From Triatoma infestans (Eukaryota; Arthropoda; Insecta; Hemiptera; Reduviidae): a stretch of 64,000 nucleotides of DNA. The notes beneath the pieces are model-generated. The model saw only the letters and a list, made by a program, of their open reading frames with translations, was not told where the DNA came from and did no database searches. Numbering within the stretch: position 1 is the stretch's first letter; each line of letters starts with the position of its first letter. The stretch lies in assembly GCA_011037195.1 (NCBI GenBank), contig JAAEAF010001946.1, positions 62,001 to 126,000 of the forward strand, in the 5' to 3' direction. The position numbers and the translations under genes were made by a program. Below are positions 4,097 through 58,060 of this stretch, one piece after another.

Positions 4097-4155
4097 GATT
4101 CCGCAGAACATTTCATCAGACATATATTCCGTGATAGCCTGCTTCATTTTGTGGT

Positions 4156-4194
4156 CATCGGTCCGGTTTCAGGCGTTCCCCCATCATCAGGATA
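4156..4194 (-). ncRNA. Degenerate hammerhead ribozyme motif
   Basis: On the minus strand the copy keeps CUGAUGA and GAAA, but helix II is weakened (GGGG opposite GCCU) and one extra base sits before the cleavage position (CCGGACC instead of CCGGUC). It is probably inactive. It is the inverted partner of 4292-4329. Confidence 0.5.
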
Positions 4195-4291
4195 TGTTTT
4201 TGTCAAAACAGTGTGATAATATAGACTGTGTGTGTATCAACTAAATTTGCCCTGTGCAAATCTATATTATCACACTGTTTTGACAAAAACA

Positions 4292-4329
4292 TATCCTGAT
4301 GATGGGCGAACGCTCGAAACCGGTCGATG
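4292..4329 (+). ncRNA. Hammerhead ribozyme motif (type I, minimal)
   Basis: In order: helix I 5' strand TATC (4292-4295), core CTGATGA (4296-4302), one extra T (4303), helix II GGGC/GCTC around a GAAC loop (4304-4315), core GAA plus A15.1 (4316-4319), CCGG (4320-4323), U16.1 and C17 (4324-4325), then helix I 3' strand GATG (4326-4329). Cleavage would follow C4325. TATC pairs with GATG over 4 bp, counting one G-T wobble. The helix III segment ACCGGT is too short to fold stably alone but is palindromic, so two copies could pair. This fits known short-helix-III hammerheads of Penelope-like elements. An extra base after A9 has been described in some natural hammerheads. Confidence 0.75.
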
Positions 4330-4385
4330 ACTACAAAAAGAAGTAGGCTATCACAAGAAAATATCTCTGATGATAGTTGGAATCA

Positions 4386-12976: not shown

Positions 12977-13740
12977 TTAATCAAGAGTATAATATACTTT
13001 TAATTTTATTAAATTCTGGAATGCCATATTTAACATATCCAAGTTAATCTGGTTTGCTGCCCGCATCATCCCATAGATAGGGGAATGGAAGATATAATTA
13101 TACTTGTAGTAAGGTATATTGAAAGGAAAAGATTTTCTTGTAGAGTGAGAAGGTATATTTAAAGAGATTAAAGAAAGAAGGTGAGGACTGTCTATTTGAG
13201 AATGGAGAAGTTTACATAGGAAAGAGAGATTATAAATAAAGAGAGATCCTGGCTGACAAAGGATGTGAAAATCAGAATAGATAGCGTTTTCTTTAGGAAT
13301 CTTTAAGCGAAATACTAACCACTGAAGAAACTTATTCTGAATAGTCTCAGTAGTATCCCTATGCACCTTGCAAAATGGACTCCAAATTATTGAACCGTAT
13401 TCAAGATGAGGTCTTACGAGGAGGGATTTATACAGAGTAACATAAGAACTACAAAATTCCTCGTATTTCTGAAGACAAATCCAAGCATTTGCAACGATTT
13501 GCTTTTGACCTTGTTGATATGATCAACGAAATCCAATTTAGTGTTTTAAGGTTACGTCCAAGTCTTTTACAGATGATACCCTACACAGTGTAGAACCATT
13601 TAGAGTATAATTCCAAGTTATAGGAGTACACTGCCTAGTCAAGGCACACTACACTTGGACAAGTTCAGTTCTAAACAGTTCTTAAGGCAGCAATGAGATA
13701 AGAAGTCCAATGCCTGTTGCAAGAGACTACAGTCTTGAAA
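12977..13740 (-). pseudogene. Jockey/CR1-type non-LTR reverse transcriptase relic
   Basis: On the minus strand, from high to low coordinate, it gives pieces of the RT region downstream of the catalytic box: CSLLQQALDFLSHCCLKN followed by CLELNLSKCSV (from about 13735), a broken VKDLDVTL segment, RPHLEYGSIIWSPFC (about 13410-13366), and then the 129-aa open frame HRDTTETIQNKFLQWLVFRL and onward. The order L-x-L-N-x-S-K-C, then V-R-P-x-L-E-Y-x-S-x-I-W-S-P is standard for the palm-thumb transition of jockey/CR1-like elements. Stops and frameshifts break it, and the YADD box lies outside the preserved part. No tail or target duplication was recognised. Confidence 0.75.
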
Positions 13741-24975: not shown

Positions 24976-25038
24976 TAATAATAATTCAATTTATCAGAGA
25001 TATTTTCCGTGATAGCCAGCTTCTTTTTTTTTTGTGGA

Positions 25039-25076
25039 CATCGACCGGTTTCGGGTGTTCACCCTTCATCAGGTTG
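25039..25076 (-). ncRNA. Hammerhead ribozyme motif with compensatory helix II change
   Basis: Minus strand: CTGATGA, one extra A, helix II GGGT/ACCC around GAAC, GAAA, CCGG, T, C, then GATG. Other copies have GGGC/GCCC, so a C-to-T change on one side is matched by G-to-A on the other, keeping the pair. Helix I is weakened here (AAC before the core instead of ATC). Confidence 0.7.
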
Positions 25077-25492
25077 TTTTTGTCAAAAACAGTGTAATAA
25101 CATAGACTTGCAAAGAGTAAATGTAGTTGATACGCTCCAAATGTGCTCTTAAGAATAGGACTAACATTAATCATCCAAACCATCCTAGACGCAATAATAA
25201 CAGGAATAATAATTAACAGGTGAATAAAATCTTAATACTGCGTATGTCTTTGTGTTAATTAGACCCTAAAATACTGTGTGTAGACTGTGTGATAATTAGA
25301 ACTTAGTAGTGTGTATGTCTGTGTGATAACAATAGCAAGATTAGTCTCACACATTATGAAAAATTTCACACATCATGATCAATAACTTCATTTATCATAC
25401 CCCTTCTGGCTTCGTCCCTTGTTCCCTTTTTTTTATTGTGGATCAATTAGAAACTAGTACAAGTCTATTTTATCACACTGTTTTGTCAAAAA

Positions 25493-25530
25493 CATCCTGA
25501 TGTTGGGCGGGTGCTCGAAAACGGGCGATG
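25493..25530 (+). ncRNA. Decayed hammerhead motif
   Basis: CATC and GATG of helix I are kept, but the core reads CTGATGT and the cleavage triplet area is ACGGGC. It is likely inactive. Confidence 0.45.
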
Positions 25531-25612
25531 ATCAAAAAAAAAAAAACGAAGCAGGCTATCACAGAAAATATCTGTGATGCTTTCCAATTGTGCGGAACCA
25601 ATCAAAACAAGA

Positions 25613-26836: not shown

Positions 26837-28376
26837 AGGGTATTGGGCGGTTAAATAGCAGCCTAGTTTCCACAAATTACATTCATTTAGTGAAAATTAT
26901 GTAAAAATACATCAGCAAAACATTGTTTATATGGTTCAACCAAAACGTTGTCGCAATTTAATAAAAGCCCACAGCACATATAAAAGCAGAGATTATACAT
27001 ACAAAGCGGCTAAAATACTATGACGGCAAGCGGTTTATGTGCCACTTGATTTCTCGATACTTTGTGGGATGATATCATTTGAGAGCTGAGGATTTCATCT
27101 TCTTTTTATAATAGAAGGCCGCCATAAATTCCATTAAAAAAAGAAATTATCCTCACAATTATTGCGTAATAATATTTTTGAAATAAAAAAAAACTTTAAA
27201 ATACATATTATTTACCTTTTATTAAAGCAATAAAAATTATTACTACACTACTGTTGCCAATTAACGTCGTCACTAAGGTATTAAAAAAAATATATAGACC
27301 CCCCCCAACAAGTTTGTTGCTATTTAAAGTAATTAAATTTAAATGGAATGCGTTAAATTTAATTAAATAGTCTAGTTAATAAGATAGAACGTGTTTCTGG
27401 GCCGGCAGAGCTCATAAGACAACAACACCAGCTCCTGTCCGGGAACATACATTATCTTCATGATATTAAACTTACCACAAACTACCTAACTCTTCCGCGA
27501 ACTATGTACAATTTAAATTATCTCTAAGGATAAGAAATAAATCTTCTTCTTTTTATTTTACTTCATATGGCGGTTTTTTTTTGTTTTTTTTTTATTTATT
27601 TCAATTGCTCCAACAAAAATACAAAACAGGATATATCTGTCAGTAAGCCATTACTGCAATACTTAACATTTGATGGAAGAAAAAATAATAATGCAGCTAT
27701 ATTTAAAATATATATATATGTTTTCTATGAATTATAATAACTAGCTTTTGCATCTCGTCTTGACAAGTTAATTTTCAGTATTACGTAAGTCTTGTCGGAG
27801 CGGTGAGCCTGCGCTCTTTGTCTATATTATTATACCACCCGCGCGCCATCAACACTAACACTATCAATATTGATGCATCCAACAGGAAATCCAGTAAAGA
27901 CTGTTGGAATCTGCCGGTCAGACATTCACGCTAATAAAGCAATTCTCACCAATAAATATATTCATGTTAATAAAGTAATTCATACCAATCATTAACTGAA
28001 GAGGAAAGTACCCAATAATCCCTTCCCCTTTAAAATAATAAATTAACCTAATTAAGTGAATTATTCTATATTCTTCACCCAGTTTTATTTAACCTAAAAC
28101 TACTCCCTCTAAATTTTGCTATATATAGATTTTTTCTTAGAGAATAACGCGCATATATCATGTGGCAGAACTCTTACTTGTATTATGTGAAAATACATTA
28201 TTTGTTAAATATAACAAAGATACAGCAATGAAATATTAGATTTCCAACACACACAAAATTCATTGGCAGTCTTTGGAATGGTGTACGTCACTGACCAGTC
28301 AAAAATAAAGTAATATAAATTCATTAATTTTGTGGCCGCGACTTTGGTTTGATAAGTGAAGAATTTTTGACGTTGT
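26837..28376. other. Stretch without recognised features
   Basis: AT-rich with an isolated GC-richer patch near 27775-27855. No gene or repeat family was identified. Confidence 0.4.
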
Positions 28377-28612
28377 GGGGGTTGGTTCCGCAAAGCTGGA
28401 AAACATCAGAGACATTTTCCGTGGTAGCCTGCTTCATTTTGTGGTCATCGACCGGTTTCGGGCGTTCGCCCATCTTCAGGATGCGGTTGTCAGACAGTGT
28501 TGATAACACAGACTTGCACAGAACAAATTCAGTTAATACACTCAGAGAACGCCCGAAACCGGTCGAAGACCATAAAATGAAGCAGACTACCACGGAAAAT
28601 TCTCTGAAGAAT
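28377..28612. mobile_element. Foldback element with hammerhead arm (copy F1c)
   Basis: The left arm, from ggttggttccgcaaagctgg through gcctgcttcattttgtggtc, is well preserved. The right arm is shorter because its CTGA box and part of helix II are deleted (28541-28560). The outer ends read acattttccgtgg and ccacggaaaattct. The overlapping open frames on both strands here are the arms read as protein. Confidence 0.8.
28446..28483 (-). ncRNA. Hammerhead ribozyme motif (best copy)
   Basis: On the minus strand, 38 nt: CATC (helix I), CTGAAGA (core), T, GGGC-GAAC-GCCC (perfect 4-bp helix II), GAA-A, CCGG, T-C (cleavage after C), GATG (helix I, perfect 4-bp partner of CATC). All positions usually conserved in hammerheads (C3 U4 G5 A6, G8 A9, G12 A13 A14, A15.1, U16.1, H17) are present. 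The one deviation is an extra base between A9 and helix II. Helix III is the palindrome ACCGGT, suggesting a 4-nt loop closed by A-U or pairing between two molecules. Confidence 0.8.
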
Positions 28613-28780
28613 TTGACATTTGAAGATTTATTAAGTTGTCTTATCGTAATATAACGATGCTATATAGTAAAAAAAAATGGGCTAATCATCCTATATTACG
28701 ATTCCTCAGTTTGAGGAGGCCAAAAGATCCTTGTGTAGACCGTAGAGCCAAGAAAGAAGAAATAGTGAAGCTATAATGTA

Positions 28781-29044
28781 AGGCTGTCCTCACGCGTTGG
28801 TCTAGTGGCTAGCGCACTCCCCTTTCGTGCGAGAATTCAAGGTTCGATTCCAGTGAGGGCAAAGTCGCGTGTTGACCCAGCATCGTGATAAAAAGTGGGA
28901 AGCTACAGTTAGTAGCGCCCTAGGTAGCGAAGGCCGTAACTAAACGGCGTGGGAACTGCGGCGGGCTTATCACATGCCTCCCTATTCAAATCGCCGTCTG
29001 GCAAGCCTTGGCCCTTCATGGGCTGTTGCGCCATAGGATTTCTT
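28781..29044 (+). repeat. tRNA-headed SINE (family S2) with target duplication
   Basis: Head cgcgttggtctagtggctag (A-box), ggttcgattcc (B-box), then gcgtgttgacccagcatcg, an agctacagttagtagcgcc block and gccgtctggcaagcc. It is flanked by tataatgta at 28772-28780 and 29045-29053, a 9-bp direct repeat consistent with a target duplication. Confidence 0.85.
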
Positions 29045-34187: not shown

Positions 34188-35113
34188 GATAGATAGATAG
34201 ATAGATACTTTATTCGTACAGCACCAAAGGTACAGAACAGTGTCAAAAAACAAAAAAGTTTCAATCAATTACAGAGGTACTCGTTTATGGAGTAATAATT
34301 TTTATTTAATAAATATTTTTTAAGTTTCTTTTTTAAATTTATTTTTTGATAGGCTCACCCGAAGCAAAGATTCGGGCAAACAATTATAGATTTTAGCGGC
34401 CATATATAGTGGGCTTTTTCCAACTTTTGAAGTCCGATGTGCACGCACCTCCAATAAGTTGTTTTGCCTTGTCGTAATGTTATGTAGTTCCCCTCTACGC
34501 CGGAACTTATTTGGATGTTCTAGTACAAATACGGCACATTTAAGGATATAGCAGCAGGGTAGTGTCAGAAAGCCTAATCGAGGAAATAGTTCGCGACAAC
34601 TTGTATCCTTTCTAACCTTGCATATTATTCTTACTACCTTTTTCTGATACTTAAACACATTCACCGCTAGTTGCGCGCTTCCCCACAACATTATGCCATA
34701 AGTTATGACTGAATGGAACAGCGCATAATAGGCCGTCTTCAGTCCTTCAATGCTCAGTACGTCAGTCAGTCGTCTCATCAAATAACACAGTCTACTTAAT
34801 TTCTCACATTTTTCCTCAATTAAGACGCCATAATTTAATTTAGTATCTAGTATTATACCTAGATAGCGCACCGTACGTACCTTTTCTTCTTTTAGTGAGA
34901 AGATTAATTCCTGTGTTTTTGACGCGTTCATTATTAAATGATTTTCCGCACTGTATTTAGCCAACCGGTTTATCGCTAATTCAGCATGTTTATTGCAATC
35001 CATGGGGTTCTCACCAGTAGTGACCAATGCTGTGTCATCTGCGTATTGTAATACCTCTACGTTTTTGATGCAAGGTAAATCATTGACATAAAGGACGAAA
35101 AGGATAGGTCCTA
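34188..35113 (-). pseudogene. 5'-truncated CR1/jockey-type non-LTR retrotransposon with catalytic YADD box
   Basis: On the minus strand the frame enters at 35113 with GPILFVLYVNDLPCI and VLQYADDTALVTTGEN, the RT catalytic box (YADD) and the G-P-x-L-F motif before it. It continues with HLIMNASKTQELIF, VRYLGIILDTKLNYG, ITYGIMLWGSAQ and the C-terminal KSPLYMAAKIYNCLPESL to 34320, without a stop over about 260 codons. The strand's 3' end is a tail of TATC units (GATA repeats at 34188-34208 on the plus strand). The 5' end is cut just upstream of the G-P-I-L block, and a stop precedes it. The open frame is young for this window. No clear target duplication was found. Confidence 0.88.
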
Positions 35114-35235
35114 ATTATTACTATATATATGGTGATTAAGATTTGTTTCTTTTTTAATAATTTCAATAATACCTAATAATGAATGACATATCATCATTTA
35201 ATTATTACATTTAGTTTATATAGTTGACAATTTAG

Positions 35236-39289: not shown

Positions 39290-39425
39290 TCCACAATGCT
39301 GGATAACATTTGACATTTTACCTGTTGTAACATGCTTATTTCTGATATTCCTGACTGTTTTCGGATTTTCATCCATCGTCAGAGTAAAGTTATCAAGTTC
39401 GTCTGGAGAGTTGACTTTAGCTTAA
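39290..39425 (-). repeat. Hammerhead-bearing repeat (second family, single arm)
   Basis: On the minus strand: a ctctccagacgaacttgat block, the hammerhead motif (39350-39385), ataagcatgttacaacagg, and an end atgttatccagcattgtgg (complement of the plus-strand start). The same end and upstream blocks occur at 56430-56690 and 61960-62100. The end also resembles the outer end of the F1 foldbacks (ttccgcagaactggaaagc), linking the two families. Confidence 0.65.
39350..39385 (-). ncRNA. Hammerhead ribozyme motif (second family, intact core)
   Basis: Minus strand: ACT, CTGACGA, T, GGAT-GAAA-ATCC (perfect 4-bp helix II with a GAAA loop), GAA-A, ACAG, T-C, AGG. All core positions are present, with the same extra base after A9 and the same 4-nt helix III loop length as the F1 copies but unrelated helix II sequence. 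Helix I is short: only T-A and C-G pairs next to the core. Confidence 0.65.
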
Positions 39426-41109: not shown

Positions 41110-41823
41110 TCCGGGCCTTCACCTACTTGGCTACTTCGTATCTGTCATTACCATTGAGTTTTGAAAATCTGATATGGCCCCAGAAATTTATTGCAAATCT
41201 TCGTTCTAGGGTTGAACTGGGTACGACGAATTGCTACCAGGTCTCCTAATTGGTACTTTCGAGCTGCCTTGCATCCTCTGTTATACTGACGCTTATTTTC
41301 TTCTTGCATTTTTATAATGTTTTCTTGTGCTTCGTTTCTGATTCTTTCTCTTTCTTCATCCAATAGCTGCATCATCTTAACGTCTTCCTTCTGTCTCATT
41401 TTTACTCTCCTCTTTGATAGGTGCTGTTAATACACTTTTTGACTCTATCGACGTGACGATACCAGCTATTTGGTTTATCAGTCGACAACTTGGTTAGAAC
41501 GGATATTACTATACTCTTTGTCCGTTCTACTTGACCATTGTCTCTAGGTACTCCTGTTGTTATAGTAACGTGTTCGATACCTTCTTCTTCTTCAGAACAG
41601 TAATCTTTAAATGCGGTTGAAGTAAACGCAGTTCCCCTATCTGTAATAACTCTTTGAGGGTTCCCAAAGACAGCTTGTTGAATCGTCAGCTTCTGTACAG
41701 CTTCCTGTGTTCCGGTGCTCTTGGTATGGTACAGCCACACGAATTTCGAAAACGCATCGACAACGACCTACAAATACTTATATCTTTTGAAGTCGCCACT
41801 AAAGGCCCAACATGGTCTAAGTG
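41110..41823 (-). pseudogene. Gypsy integrase core and C-terminal tail, frameshifted
   Basis: The minus strand starts DHVGPLVATSKD, shifts, then VVVDAFSKFVWLYHTKSTG. It continues NPQRVITDRGTAFTSTAF and ends the core with GVPRDNGQVERTKS. The D...D...E residues of the DD35E core are visible but split over frames. After a stop at 41402, MRQKEDVKMMQLLDEERERI leads to YQLGDLVAIRRTQFNPRTK and LGPYQIF. A frameshift near 41150 leads into GEGPEMTATAANYMKPF, the usual gypsy C-terminus. Confidence 0.85.
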
Positions 41824-42411
41824 CTACTTGCAAAGTGGGGTATCATCCTTCGGTATAGGTTTCAACTCACCCTCCTTCTTTCCTCTCTTTCTATCGGCTA
41901 ATATGCAAGTTATGCAGCACTCGCAGAATCTTTTCAGTTTTTCTTCCAACTTAGGGATATAATATTCTTCCTCGATAGATTCTTTCATCTTTTTGTCACC
42001 AAAGTGTCCATTCTCGTGAGGTCTCTTCATTACTTCCATTTCCATACTCATGGGTATAACAACTTTATTTACTCCCTCCACTCTTTTCTTTAAAACTCCG
42101 TCCTCCAATAGAAAATCTTCGTAAGCTTCCCGTTCCAAAATCCTCATAATAACCCTTAATTTTTCATCTTCATTCTGCTTCTTCCTAATTGAATTCATCA
42201 CTGTGTCCTCTATTATCCATGCGGGATCTCCCGGTCGGTGTTCTATCTGATAATCAAATTCTTCAAGTGCCAATGCCCACCTAGCTACTCTCGGCGGCAG
42301 ATCTCTTTTAGTCAACGTTTTTTGAAATGCCTGGCTATCCGTTACGATTTTGACTGTAATCCTAAGAGATAGACTCGGAACTTTTTCACTGCTTAGGCTA
42401 CTGCCAGACAT
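41824..42411 (-). pseudogene. Gypsy RNase H end and H2C2 zinc finger
   Basis: The 195-aa frame gives VTDSQAFQKTLTKRDL and PRVARWALALEEFDYQIEHR (RNase H end), then a linker, then HENGHFGDKKMKESIEEEYY with CECCITCILADR, the H-H-C-C zinc-binding domain that opens the integrase. It continues to PKDDTPLCK near 41824. The expected acidic residues of RNase H here are only partly kept (DSQAF). Confidence 0.88.
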
Positions 42412-42990
42412 TCTAATTCAGACGAATATTTCCTTTCAGCCTCGTTAGTATTTCTACTCATGTAATATACCGGTGTCATATATTCTTCATCCTGATCCTT
42501 CTGTAGCAATACCGCGCCGTAACCGTCAATGCTGGCATCGCAATGAAGTTCAGTTACAGTTTCCGGATCATAAATTTTAAGAAGTGGTTCGCTAACCAAC
42601 TCTTTCTTCAGCGTATCAAATGCCTGCCTTTGACGTTCACCAAATTCAAAAGAACGATCCTTTTTCAGAATCTCAGTAAGCGGAAAAGCGATTTTCGCAT
42701 AATCCTTTACAAACTTCCGAAAATAGCCTGTCAAGCCAAGGGAACTTTGATTTTGTTTCCGCGTTTTTGGTTCAGGATACCTCTGTACTGCCTTCAGTTT
42801 TGCAGGTGAGGGAGCAGCGAAACTTCCTTCTATGACATGGCCAAGAAAGTCTACCCGTCTTTGCAAGAACGCGCACTTTTCCCACTTAATTATTAGCCCA
42901 TTATCAGCTGCTACCCGTAGAATCTCAACGATTTTGTTGAAGGCTTCATCTACGCCGAGTACAATTATATCATCCATATAAGTGAAAACT
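42393..42990 (-). pseudogene. Gypsy reverse transcriptase (second half) and RNase H start
   Basis: Minus strand: FTYMDDIIVLGVDEAF (YMDD catalytic box), KWEKCAFLQRRVDFLGHVI, SPAKLKAVQRYPEP, GLTGYFRKFVKDYAKIAFPL (RT connection), then the RNase H start LHCDASIDGYGAVLLQ and PVYYMSRNTNEAERKYSSE. It ends in a frameshift at about 42400. The part of RT before YMDD is gone. This arrangement is typical of Ty3/gypsy pol. Confidence 0.9.
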
Positions 42991-43340
42991 ACTTTTCGTT
43001 TAATAAAATCTCATTGTATCTACTTGCCACATTCTAATAATTTCCTCAGTCAGTTCTGCATATTTCCTAATTTTCTCCGCTATTGTGCTTGCAATGTTCT
43101 GCGTATTAGGGACAGCGATTTCGACTATATTTTATATACTTGCTTTCACAGTTTGTTCTCTATGAGGTTCGGTCTATTATGGTGGATCGCTCTGTCAGTC
43201 AGCACAGATTTGTCATAGTATAAGCAGTAGTTCTGATCTTCACAAACAGGCGCCACTTTATACTTATAATATGGATCCAATTTACCATTTATAAAACCTA
43301 CATCTAAGCGCCAATTGTAGGTGAACAATTTTTGCCACAA
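42990..43340 (-). pseudogene. Retroelement C-terminal fragment with RPD-type nuclease-like motif
   Basis: Minus strand: NWRLDVGFINGKLDPYYKYK, VAPVCEDQNYCLYYDKSVLT, DRAIHHNRPNLIENK, then after a frameshift VEIAVPNTQNIASTIAEKIR, KYAELTEEIIRMWQVD. This is a well-known retroelement-associated domain with N-R-P-D-x-x-x then a second acidic/D-x-A-x-P strand, resembling restriction-like (PD-(D/E)XK) endonuclease cores. The D of N-R-P-D is N here. It stops at MRFY followed by TAA, directly before the gypsy YMDD region. Its parent element class is uncertain. Confidence 0.6.
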
Positions 43341-56107: not shown

Positions 56108-56240
56108 TGGTGTAGCGAGTGCAAGTCTGTGTTATCATACTGTCTGACAAACGCATCCTGAAGATGGGCGAACGCCCAAAACACAGGTCGATGACCAAAA
56201 AATGAAGCAGGCTCCCATGGAAAATGTCTCTGAAATATTA
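56108..56240 (+). repeat. Single arm of the hammerhead foldback (copy F1d)
   Basis: One arm only: gcaagtctgtgttatcatac, a hammerhead-like core at 56154-56193, atgaagcaggctcccatgg, aaaatgtctctga. The core reads CATC, CTGAAGA, T, GGGC-GAAC-GCCC, but then AAAA instead of GAAA, and CACAGGTC has two extra bases. It is probably inactive. Confidence 0.65.
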
Positions 56241-56429
56241 ATGTTCATCTTTATATAAATTATATTTTTTACAATTTATTAATAAAATTACTGATTTATT
56301 AATATTTTTTTTGGATTCGTCTAATTATCACCACAATTTATTATTATTCCTGCCATAAATATTTTTTTGGAGCATTCGATTTATCAAATTATTTCGGAGA
56401 ATATCAAATTGAATTTAGTTATCCGGTAT

Positions 56430-56690
56430 TTTATCCGTCGTAGCATGCATAATGGTTTTTGTTCCTGACCGGTTTTGGTTCCGGATGGTTTTGGATATTC
56501 ATCCATCGTCAGAGCAAATTCACCAAGTTCGTGTAGAGAGTTCACTTCAACGAAATGTTTCTGTAGACTCACGCTTGTTGGTTGTATGTATGTGGGAAGG
56601 TTATCAACAAAACCAATATGCATGCTACGACGGATAAAATACCAGATGTTATCCAGCATTGCGGACCCAGCCACATTTTGAATTTAGTTA
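56430..56690. repeat. Hammerhead-bearing repeat (second family) with inverted ends
   Basis: attttatccgtcgtagcatgc (21 bp) near 56430-56450 recurs inverted at 56618-56640 (gcatgctacgacggataaaat). The inner part has ccatcgtcagagcaaattca and ccaagttcgtgtagagagtt. It ends atgttatccagcattgcgg then acccagccac, as in 39290-39425. The overlapping short frames on both strands are this palindrome read as protein. Confidence 0.7.
56464..56515 (-). ncRNA. Disrupted hammerhead motif (second family)
   Basis: Minus strand: GCT, CTGACGA, T, GGAT-GAAT-ATCC, then a 16-nt insertion or duplication (AAAACCATCCGGAACC), then AAAACCGGTC and AGG. The G of GAAA is A. The helices I and II resemble 39350-39385. Unlikely to cleave. 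Confidence 0.5.
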
Positions 56691-57049: not shown

Positions 57050-57215
57050 AATTCTCCTAAAGATGTTTACAGCCAAAGGTATATAGGAATAGAAATGAGA
57101 TGTTTGTACGGCAATGGCCAGAACAGTTTTTAAAGAAAAAGAATTCTTTGTTGCTCTATGTTTCGGGTACCATTGGTGCCCTTCTTCAGGAACTCTTTAG
57201 GGTAGGAGAGGAGTG
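57050..57215 (-). repeat. Repeat scrap with a hammerhead-like block
   Basis: Minus strand at 57154-57190: CTGAAGA, A, GGGCACCAATGGTACCC (a stem with one mismatch), GAAA, CATAGAG. The core boxes are present but the U-H cleavage position is not. The left part (57080-57160) resembles 11195-11265, so this is a dispersed repeat. Confidence 0.4.
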
Positions 57216-57575: not shown

Positions 57576-57887
57576 TTTTCTTTGTCTTAATTCTGACCTT
57601 GTTGTATATAAATATTATGTTCACATTATTTAAAAAGAGTATCATTTGTATGAGTCGTATAGTAAGTGTGTGACAAAATAGCGTCTCTTTTACAGACTTG
57701 ATCAAATCTGACAATGGAGGAAAATCCAAAACTGGTTAGAATTAAAGAAAAGAATTATGTTATGACGGTTACAGTCTCAAATTTAACAACGTTCTTTATT
57801 TAAAATGTCATTATTACTGCATTAGTTCCATCACAGCCTTTTATTAGCATAAAAACAATTAAAAGGGCTTTTTGATGGTTGATTCTT

Positions 57888-58060
57888 GTGGTGGTTGGTT
57901 CCGCAGAACTGGAAAGCATCAGAGACATTTTTCGTGAAGCCTGCTTCATTTTGTGGTCATCGACCGGTTTCGGTCGTTCGCCAATCTTCAGGATGCGTTT
58001 TTCACATAGTGTGATAACACAGACTTGCACAGAGCAAATTCAGTCTATACACTGACTCTA
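57888..58060 (-). repeat. Single arm of the hammerhead foldback (copy F1e)
   Basis: Left-type arm: tggttggttccgcagaactg, gaaagcatcagagacat, gcctgcttcattttgtggtc, and the hammerhead core on the minus strand at 57958-57995. The inverted partner is missing. The open frame at 57800-58030 (-) is this arm. Confidence 0.7.
57958..57995 (-). ncRNA. Hammerhead motif with damaged helix II
   Basis: CATC, CTGAAGA, T, TGGC-GAAC-GACC, GAA-A, CCGG, T-C, GATG. The core and helix I are intact; helix II keeps only two pairs. Confidence 0.6.

What the first reader, a model, noticed from the sequence alone, without database searches (positions are those of the whole stretch)
28446..28483. Near-consensus hammerhead ribozyme core in a palindromic mobile element
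The minus strand here has every conserved hammerhead position: CUGAAGA, a perfect 4-bp helix II, GAAA, a U-C cleavage site, and a perfect 4-bp helix I (CATC/GATG). The one departure is an extra base after A9. The same design recurs in at least five other copies, so it is a repeat family carrying a ribozyme and not a chance match. Helix III is the palindrome ACCGGT, which suggests cleavage as a dimer or with a 4-nt loop. Short type I hammerheads of this kind are known from Penelope-like elements and retrozymes.
Basis: partly seen in the sequence, partly recalled or inferred. Interest (0 to 1): 0.85.

Follow-up and report, generated by a model that had tools for sequence, protein, structure and literature searches.

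The report
Ribozyme remnant of a Penelope-like retrotransposon
A tiny hammerhead-type self-cutting RNA motif in a blood-feeding bug's genome is part of one short, double-ended insertion that most likely was left by a Penelope-like jumping element, a known kind of motif present here in thousands of copies.

Summary
The motif is real: minus strand 28446-28483 has the full hammerhead core, one extra base after A9, perfect helices I and II, and a self-complementary helix III. It is not chance: 0 hits in 300 simulated windows and 8,434 identical 38-mers in the 941-Mb genome, against 0 for the reversed pattern. No Rfam hammerhead model matches.

The host is a triatomine bug. The motif lies in a ~236-bp insertion, 28372-28607, of two head-to-head arms. 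Its ends, 35-bp 'tail', short target-site duplications and start codon inside the ribozyme match published Penelope-like elements (PLEs; PMC11167929, PMC3846280). A PLE frame with RT and GIY-YIG in this genome (L061) has the same ribozyme design with different helices. This is a new member of a known kind.

The most interesting pattern: 38 of 40 head-to-head pairs have exactly one tailed and one untailed end, with 38 distinct joins. That suggests the two cut DNA ends were primed at two adjacent RNA sites. This family's own RT/endonuclease gene was not found, and cleavage is untested.

The parts
28446..28483 (-). Hammerhead-type core: helix I CATC 28483-28480 / GATG 28449-28446; CTGAAGA 28479-28473; extra T 28472; helix II GGGC 28471-28468 / GCCC 28463-28460; GAA 28459-28457; helix III ACCGGT 28456-28451; C17 28450
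   Evidence: read from sequence; descriptor hit; 8,434 exact copies in genome
28449..28450 (-). Predicted cleavage site (3' of C17 at 28450); inferred, untested
   Evidence: hammerhead geometry, established knowledge
28471..28473 (-). ATG start codon formed by A9, the extra U and the first helix II base; frame reads MGERPKPVDDHKMKQATTENVSDVFQLCGTNPHN
   Evidence: translation; similar layout in Anolis PAc
28372..28607 (-). Whole insertion: long tailed arm 28372-28542 (S170 to S1 of the sense sequence S), 4-nt filler 28543-28546, short untailed arm 28547-28607 (S75 to S136)
28372..28404 (-). 'Tail' extension with AC-rich end (...GGAACCAACCCCCACAAC on the minus strand)
   Evidence: compared with PMC11167929 and PMC3846280
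28414..28467 (.). Left arm of the 54-nt inverted repeat; pairs with 28547-28600
   Evidence: the 241-nt minus transcript folds at -124.2 kcal/mol, z -14.91
28547..28600 (.). Right arm of the inverted repeat
28358..28371 (+). Left target-site duplication GAAGAATTTTTGAC
   Evidence: read from sequence; ungapped TSD score 8, below the threshold of 10 because of a 2-nt difference
28606..28617 (+). Right target-site duplication GAAGAATTTGAC (2 nt shorter in a T run; its first 2 nt overlap the arm end)
   Evidence: read from sequence
4114..4372 (.). Second head-to-head copy of the same family; strict ribozyme at 4292-4329 plus
24993..25601 (.). Older copy, arms 24993-25137 and 25457-25601
56119..56233 (+). 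Copy with one recognisable arm
57886..58053 (-). Copy with one recognisable arm and a decayed helix II

Best explanation
28372-28607 is one dead insertion of the 5' end of a Penelope-like retrotransposon RNA. The RNA starts near 'S1' (AGTGTRTAAACTG), carries a minimal hammerhead whose helix II begins at the ATG of the ORF, and has two internal reverse-transcription start sites about 68 and 102-104 nt into the ORF. The element's protein cuts both target strands about 12 bp apart. One DNA end primes at the distal (tail, AC-rich) site and usually copies to the RNA 5' end; the other primes at the proximal site and usually stops within the ribozyme. The two cDNAs are then joined head to head. The hammerhead would process transcripts by cleaving after C17, probably as a dimer through ACCGGT. 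Shown here: anatomy, TSDs, copy number, end rule, variable joins, and the same ribozyme design beside an RT plus GIY-YIG frame of another family. Inferred: membership of this family in PLEs (its own ORF was not found), double priming, RNA 5' end at S1, and any cleavage. The confidence given is for identity and anatomy; I put the double-priming step, and cleavage by source transcripts, at about one half each.
For: Core and helices. Copies. Ends in the 40 scored places plus four window regions: 40 head-to-head pairs, of which 38 have one tailed and one untailed end, 1 (L081) two tails, 1 (L019) no tail but is cut by a contig end; L005/L006 are duplicates. Sample not chosen for architecture: among 100 listed exact arm ends, 15 head-to-head pairs; 11 with exactly one tail, 0 with two, 4 with none by exact match; 0 tail-to-tail and 0 direct neighbours within 600 bp; 70 arms unpaired. 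Whole genome: 7,072 exact tailed ends and 13,333 exact arm ends, ratio 0.53. TSD score 10 or more in 20 of 28 copies against 4 of 756 cross-pairings. 38 distinct inner joins in 40 pairs. PAc from Anolis: ORF starts at stem II, cut 26 nt into the ORF (24 here), RT start 111-118 nt into the ORF, tail of 30-40 bp equals the stretch between two RT start sites, both target strands cut and extended. A. vaga Penelope: inverted pLTRs, 31-bp tail on one of them, pLTR includes the ORF start, 8-10-bp TSDs. L061: 808-aa frame with RVT_1 (29.0 bits, just under the 29.6 cut-off) and GIY-YIG (28.1, cut-off 22.6), preceded by an inverted and a direct ribozyme of the same design.
Against: No RT/GIY-YIG ORF in frame with this family's start codon was found; the GIY-YIG search scored 150 of 1,157 candidates and gave 38 matches, so this is not proof of absence. 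Copies of this family near GIY-YIG ORFs (L050 = L070, L067, weakly L071) look like separate insertions. The PLE link thus rests on end structure and on a ribozyme design shared with another family. Rfam finds no hammerhead; it also misses the L061, L037 and L065 variants, and there was no positive control (rings in 0 of 14 control genomes). Dimer hammerhead -24.7 kcal/mol is only slightly better than two monomer minima (2 x -10.6) and worse than the best non-hammerhead dimer (-28.6); for the L061 family the hammerhead dimer (-13.7) is worse than two monomers (2 x -7.6). PAc authors saw no difference of RT start site between top and bottom strands, no effect of ribozyme mutants on insertion, and no RNA-seq ends at the cut site. 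Not every copy is head to head: 70 of 100 listed arms had no exact partner, and of three copies taken in contig order 1 was head to head and 2 showed no second arm in the short stretch read. Two unrelated loci (L007, L029) share one join and three (L022, L023, L081) nearly share another, at small overlaps.
Confidence: 0.85

Rival explanations
1. Self-priming (snap-back) model: the inverted arms come from one strand folding back and copying itself, as proposed for A. vaga Penelope (on an antisense template).
For: Published inference from palindromes at inverted junctions. Arms within a copy are more alike than arms re-paired between copies: 6.3% against 7.5% difference, 0 of 2000 permutations as low, 38 pairs, as expected if both arms come from the same source.
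Against: Snap-back predicts arms that mirror each other around one centre. Here the two outer ends are fixed at two different sites and the inner ends and fillers vary. Two RTs on one RNA, or two RNAs of one source, would explain the arm similarity equally well.
Confidence: 0.2
2. A MITE-like or fold-back DNA element that moves as one palindromic unit, with the ribozyme match a passenger.
For: Short size, inverted arms, TSDs.
Against: 38 distinct inner joins in 40 pairs. The arms are unequal and end at two different points. Single-arm copies exist. The ends lie inside an ORF start and at distances like those of PLE RT start sites.
Confidence: 0.04
3. The ribozyme is a relic: the sequence is kept because it is the 5' UTR/start codon and RT-binding region, not because it cleaves.
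For: PAc ribozyme mutants insert normally in vitro and no cleaved ends were seen in RNA-seq. In 29 recent copies the ribozyme (3.3%) and its helices (3.7%) differ from the consensus about as much as the 3' flank (3.1%).
Against: Four families in one genome keep core, extra base and self-complementary helix III while both stems have different but paired sequences, although the descriptor itself demands pairing. Core divergence is the lowest measured (1.7% against 5.9% in the 5' flank).
Confidence: 0.3
4. A retrozyme-like non-autonomous element spread through circular RNA.
For: Short, ORF-less, ribozyme-bearing, very abundant.
Against: Animal retrozymes are short tandem repeats with canonical type I ribozymes (passages). 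Here no direct neighbours within 600 bp among 100 listed arm ends, and helix III has no loop.
Confidence: 0.03

Closest known systems
Small hammerhead variants of Penelope-like retrotransposons that cleave as dimers (Lunse, Weinberg, Breaker 2017, PMC5785218; not held, only its title seen in reference lists)
   Same: by its title and by reviews: minimal hammerheads of PLEs, dimer cleavage; self-complementary terminal sequence of stem III is named in PMC6466107 (passages)
   Different: this family (ACCGGT, ATG in helix II) in a triatomine bug; cleavage not tested; I could not check whether that paper lists this sequence or the extra base
PAc, Poseidon from Anolis carolinensis (PMC11167929, section 3 read)
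   Same: ORF begins at stem II of the ribozyme; two internal RT start sites bounding a 30-40-bp tail; AC-rich distal site; cleavage of both target strands
   Different: cut site 24 rather than 26 nt into the ORF; distal site 102-104 rather than 111-118; here insertions pair one tailed with one untailed end, while PAc in vitro showed no strand difference in RT start
Endonuclease-containing Penelope elements of Adineta vaga (PMC3846280, passages read)
   Same: inverted plus direct pLTR head to head, tail on one, ORF start inside pLTR, short TSDs
   Different: here very many ORF-less pairs or single arms, TSD nearer 12 bp, variable inner joins
PLE family at L061 in the same genome
   Same: same ribozyme design: CTGAGGA, one extra base, 7-bp helix II, self-complementary ACGT helix III, inverted and direct copy upstream of the ORF
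   Different: different helix sequences; ribozyme ends about 115 nt upstream of the first ATG of its long frame instead of overlapping a start codon
Newt satellite and animal retrozyme type I hammerheads (passages)
   Same: short or weak helix III (amphibian motifs), dimer activity
   Different: canonical type I motifs with tertiary loop contacts, in tandem repeats

Membership tests
Type I hammerhead ribozyme (Rfam RF00163) | core CUGANGA ... GAA(A) ... UH | tested here: met
Type I hammerhead ribozyme (Rfam RF00163) | helix II directly after A9 (no extra base) and helix III closed in the monomer | tested here: not met
   one extra U; ACCGGT has no loop; a 1-bp helix III with CCGG loop is worse than none (-2.2 against -7.2 kcal/mol)
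Type I hammerhead ribozyme (Rfam RF00163) | match to the curated model | tested here: not met
   no positive control available
Small dimeric PLE hammerhead variants | short self-complementary helix III, paired helices I and II | tested here: met
Small dimeric PLE hammerhead variants | cleaves as a dimer | not testable with these tools
   energies only, and these are equivocal
Penelope-like element insertion | two fixed ends bounding a 30-40-bp tail just inside the ORF start | tested here: met
   35-bp stretch between S137 and S172
Penelope-like element insertion | inverted/direct pLTR arrangement and short TSD | tested here: met
Penelope-like element insertion | own ORF with PLE RT and GIY-YIG | tested here: inconclusive
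   found for another family in this genome (L061), not for this one in the loci seen
Retrozyme | direct tandem copies | tested here: not met
   no direct neighbours within 600 bp among 100 listed arm ends
Retrozyme | circular RNA closed at the ribozyme cut site | not testable with these tools
   no RNA data

The most novel reading that the evidence does not exclude
PLE insertion uses obligate twin priming. The two cut target strands are primed at two different, adjacent RNA sites (one 'tail' site, one proximal site), one each per event. The self-complementary hammerhead that can join two template RNAs may hold a pair of templates for the two reactions, and the second cDNA stops at the ribozyme. 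This would explain both the inverted pLTRs and the 'optional' tail of PLEs, and would give the dimeric hammerhead a role in integration rather than only in RNA processing.
Probability: 0.3. Interest if true: 0.65.

Novelty: new member of a known kind. Interest (0 to 1): 0.38.

Why it matters
The role of the minimal hammerheads of PLEs is called unknown in a review of which I read passages (PMC7761336), and how PLE inverted repeats arise is left open in PMC3846280 (passages). A genome with 8,434 identical copies of one such motif and thousands of short insertions with readable ends, joins and TSDs is a natural record of how such elements integrate. The one-tailed/one-untailed rule is a simple, checkable constraint: it fits priming of both DNA ends at two adjacent RNA sites better than snap-back on an antisense template.

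Tried and rejected
Rfam on the window, the locus, L061, L037 and L065: no hammerhead match; the few other matches are far below their cut-offs. RF00163 over the genome: nothing, but no control genome rang either. Core-against-flank conservation in 29 recent copies: contrast only for the core letters and the 5' flank; helices and 3' flank are alike; codon positions 1, 2, 3 differ by 2.5, 3.7 and 3.3%, so no third-position excess and no sign of coding constraint after insertion. Monomer fold with a 4-nt helix III loop: unfavourable. Retrozyme and MITE readings: see rivals. Search for this family's own ORF through GIY-YIG and through PLE homologues (83 proteins): other PLE families only. Literature: 'hammerhead ribozyme' with 'Rhodnius' gave 0 papers; some searches gave the papers cited; in what I read of them I did not see the one-tail rule, but most subscription papers are not held, nor are Lunse 2017 and Cervera 2014.

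Full report
1. Observation. Minus strand 28446-28483 is CATC-CTGAAGA-T-GGGC-GAAC-GCCC-GAA-ACCGGT-C-GATG. A strict descriptor gives two hits in the window and none in 300 simulated windows. A second descriptor gives 58 hits in the window plus the 73 loci then held (349,740 bases; several loci overlap, so these are fewer than 58 places), all with exactly one extra base although none was also allowed, and 0 hits in 100 simulated sets of the same size. In the whole genome (941,445,613 bases) the exact 38-mer occurs 8,434 times (4,272 + 4,162) and a looser core 15,534 times (7,866 + 7,668); the patterns read backwards occur 0 times.

2. Host. An exon beside one copy (L018) is 98% identical to NSA2 of Rhodnius prolixus and of Panstrongylus lignarius, so the genome is that of a triatomine bug. 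The species is not determined.

3. The insertion. A search with 28380-28620 returned 84 matches from 40 scored of 6,826 candidates. Alignment of 30 copies and mapping to the sense sequence S show two arms head to head. In S, CTGA begins at S63, the ATG is S69-71, the cut follows S92, the proximal end is at about S136-137 and the distal AC-rich end at about S170-172. The window copy runs S170-S1, 4 nt of filler, S75-S136 (28372-28607), and is flanked by GAAGAATTTTTGAC / GAAGAATTTGAC. TSD scores of 10 or more occur in 20 of 28 copies with both ends located (2 of 30 dropped; the window copy scores 8) against 4 of 756 cross-pairings, which include the duplicate loci L005/L006.

4. End rule. In the 40 scored places plus four window regions, 40 head-to-head pairs were found: 38 one-tailed, 1 two-tailed (L081), 1 without tail (L019, which starts at a contig end). 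Five entries had no adjacent pair: L028 (arms 338 nt apart), L076, W57, W56 and W25. The tailed arm reaches further 5' in 33 of 38; its inner end lies at S1-S29 in 34 of 38, while the untailed arm ends at S47-S93 in 32 of 38. The search query could favour this architecture, so I also used genome pattern listings: among the first 100 exact arm ends, 15 head-to-head pairs, 11 one-tailed, 0 two-tailed, 4 untailed by exact match, 0 tail-to-tail, 0 direct within 600 bp; 70 arms unpaired, 25 of them tailed. Three copies taken in contig order gave 1 head-to-head pair (its second arm cut by the end of the stretch) and 2 without a second arm in the short stretch read. Genome totals are 7,072 exact tailed ends against 13,333 exact arm ends. 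The 40 pairs have 38 distinct joins; L005/L006 (duplicates) share one, L007/L029 share another, and L022, L023 and L081 have near-identical ones; fillers reach 25 nt, other joins overlap. So most copies arose independently.

5. Relation to PLEs. PMC11167929 (section 3 read in full) reports for Anolis PAc that the ORF starts at stem II of the hammerhead, the cut site is 26 nt into the ORF, RT starts at an AC-rich site 111-118 nt into the ORF, the 30-40-bp tail corresponds to the stretch between two RT start sites, and both target strands are cut and extended; RT start did not differ between strands. Here the numbers are 24 nt, 102-104 nt and 35 bp. PMC3846280 (passages) describes inverted pLTRs with direct ones, a 31-bp tail on one of them, 8-10-bp TSDs and mostly head-to-head repeats in A. 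vaga Penelope. In this genome L061 holds an 808-aa frame with RVT_1 (E 1.1e-6, just below the curated cut-off) and GIY-YIG (E 2.5e-6, above it), preceded by an inverted and a direct copy of a ribozyme of the same design.

6. Structure evidence. Four families (window; L061; L037; L041) have helix I CATC/GATG, AGGTA/TACCT, AATTTTTACC/GGTAGAAATT, TGTTC/GAACG and helix II GGGCG/CGCCC, GATTATG/TATAATC, GGCAA/TTGCC, GACAAAC/GTTTGTC (G-U allowed), with helix III ACCGGT or ACGT. The descriptor itself demands pairing, so the weight lies in the number of hits against 0 in simulations.

7. Function. For the window motif the dimer hammerhead has -24.7 kcal/mol against 2 x -10.6 for monomer minima; a non-hammerhead dimer reaches -28.6. 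For the L061 motif the hammerhead dimer has -13.7 against 2 x -7.6, so energy does not favour it there. Over both arms the window transcript folds into one long hairpin. So cleavage is plausible for source transcripts starting near S1, and poor for read-through of this copy. This is inference; nothing here shows activity.

8. Literature status. PLE hammerheads are described as minimal type I variants lacking helix III, in tandem, that may cleave as dimers, with role unknown (passages of PMC7761336; PMC6155905). A palindromic terminal loop of stem III and a tandem arrangement are named as requirements in PMC6466107 (passages). The two primary papers were not readable here.

9. Verdict. A new family of a known kind, in a host for which one search found no report. 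The one-tailed/one-untailed rule is the part worth following. On checking, I added the L061 dimer energy, the PAc strand result, the unpaired arms and the shared joins as evidence against; the odds were already set low for the bold reading and I left them as they were.

Noticed in passing
window 56428-56650: A different head-to-head element with a related design (minus: CTGACGATGGATGAATATCC ... GGTCAGG) and a tail-like TTATCCAGCATTGCGGACCCAGCC resembling the tail of the main family; judged by eye.
   Followed up: partly
window 57157-57189 (minus) and 39353-39382 (minus): Further decayed CTGANGA...GAAA motifs, possibly from other PLE families.
   Followed up: no
window 28787-28861 (plus): tRNA-like stretch with GGTTCGATTCC (Rfam tRNA-Sec 15.4 bits, E 6.7, far below cut-off; ARAGORN none); possible tRNA-derived SINE or pseudogene next to the element.
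   Followed up: no
window 34320-35114 (minus), 12977-13522 (minus), 41402-43010 (minus): Non-LTR RT-like ORFs and a gypsy-like pol in pieces, judged by eye.
   Followed up: no
L061 1777-4203: Another PLE family with one open frame of 809 codons, RT and GIY-YIG, with two ribozymes head to head upstream.
   Followed up: partly
L028: Two arms 338 nt apart with TSD-like flanks; the inner stretch recurs inverted at 1691-2003 of the same locus (94%).
   Followed up: no
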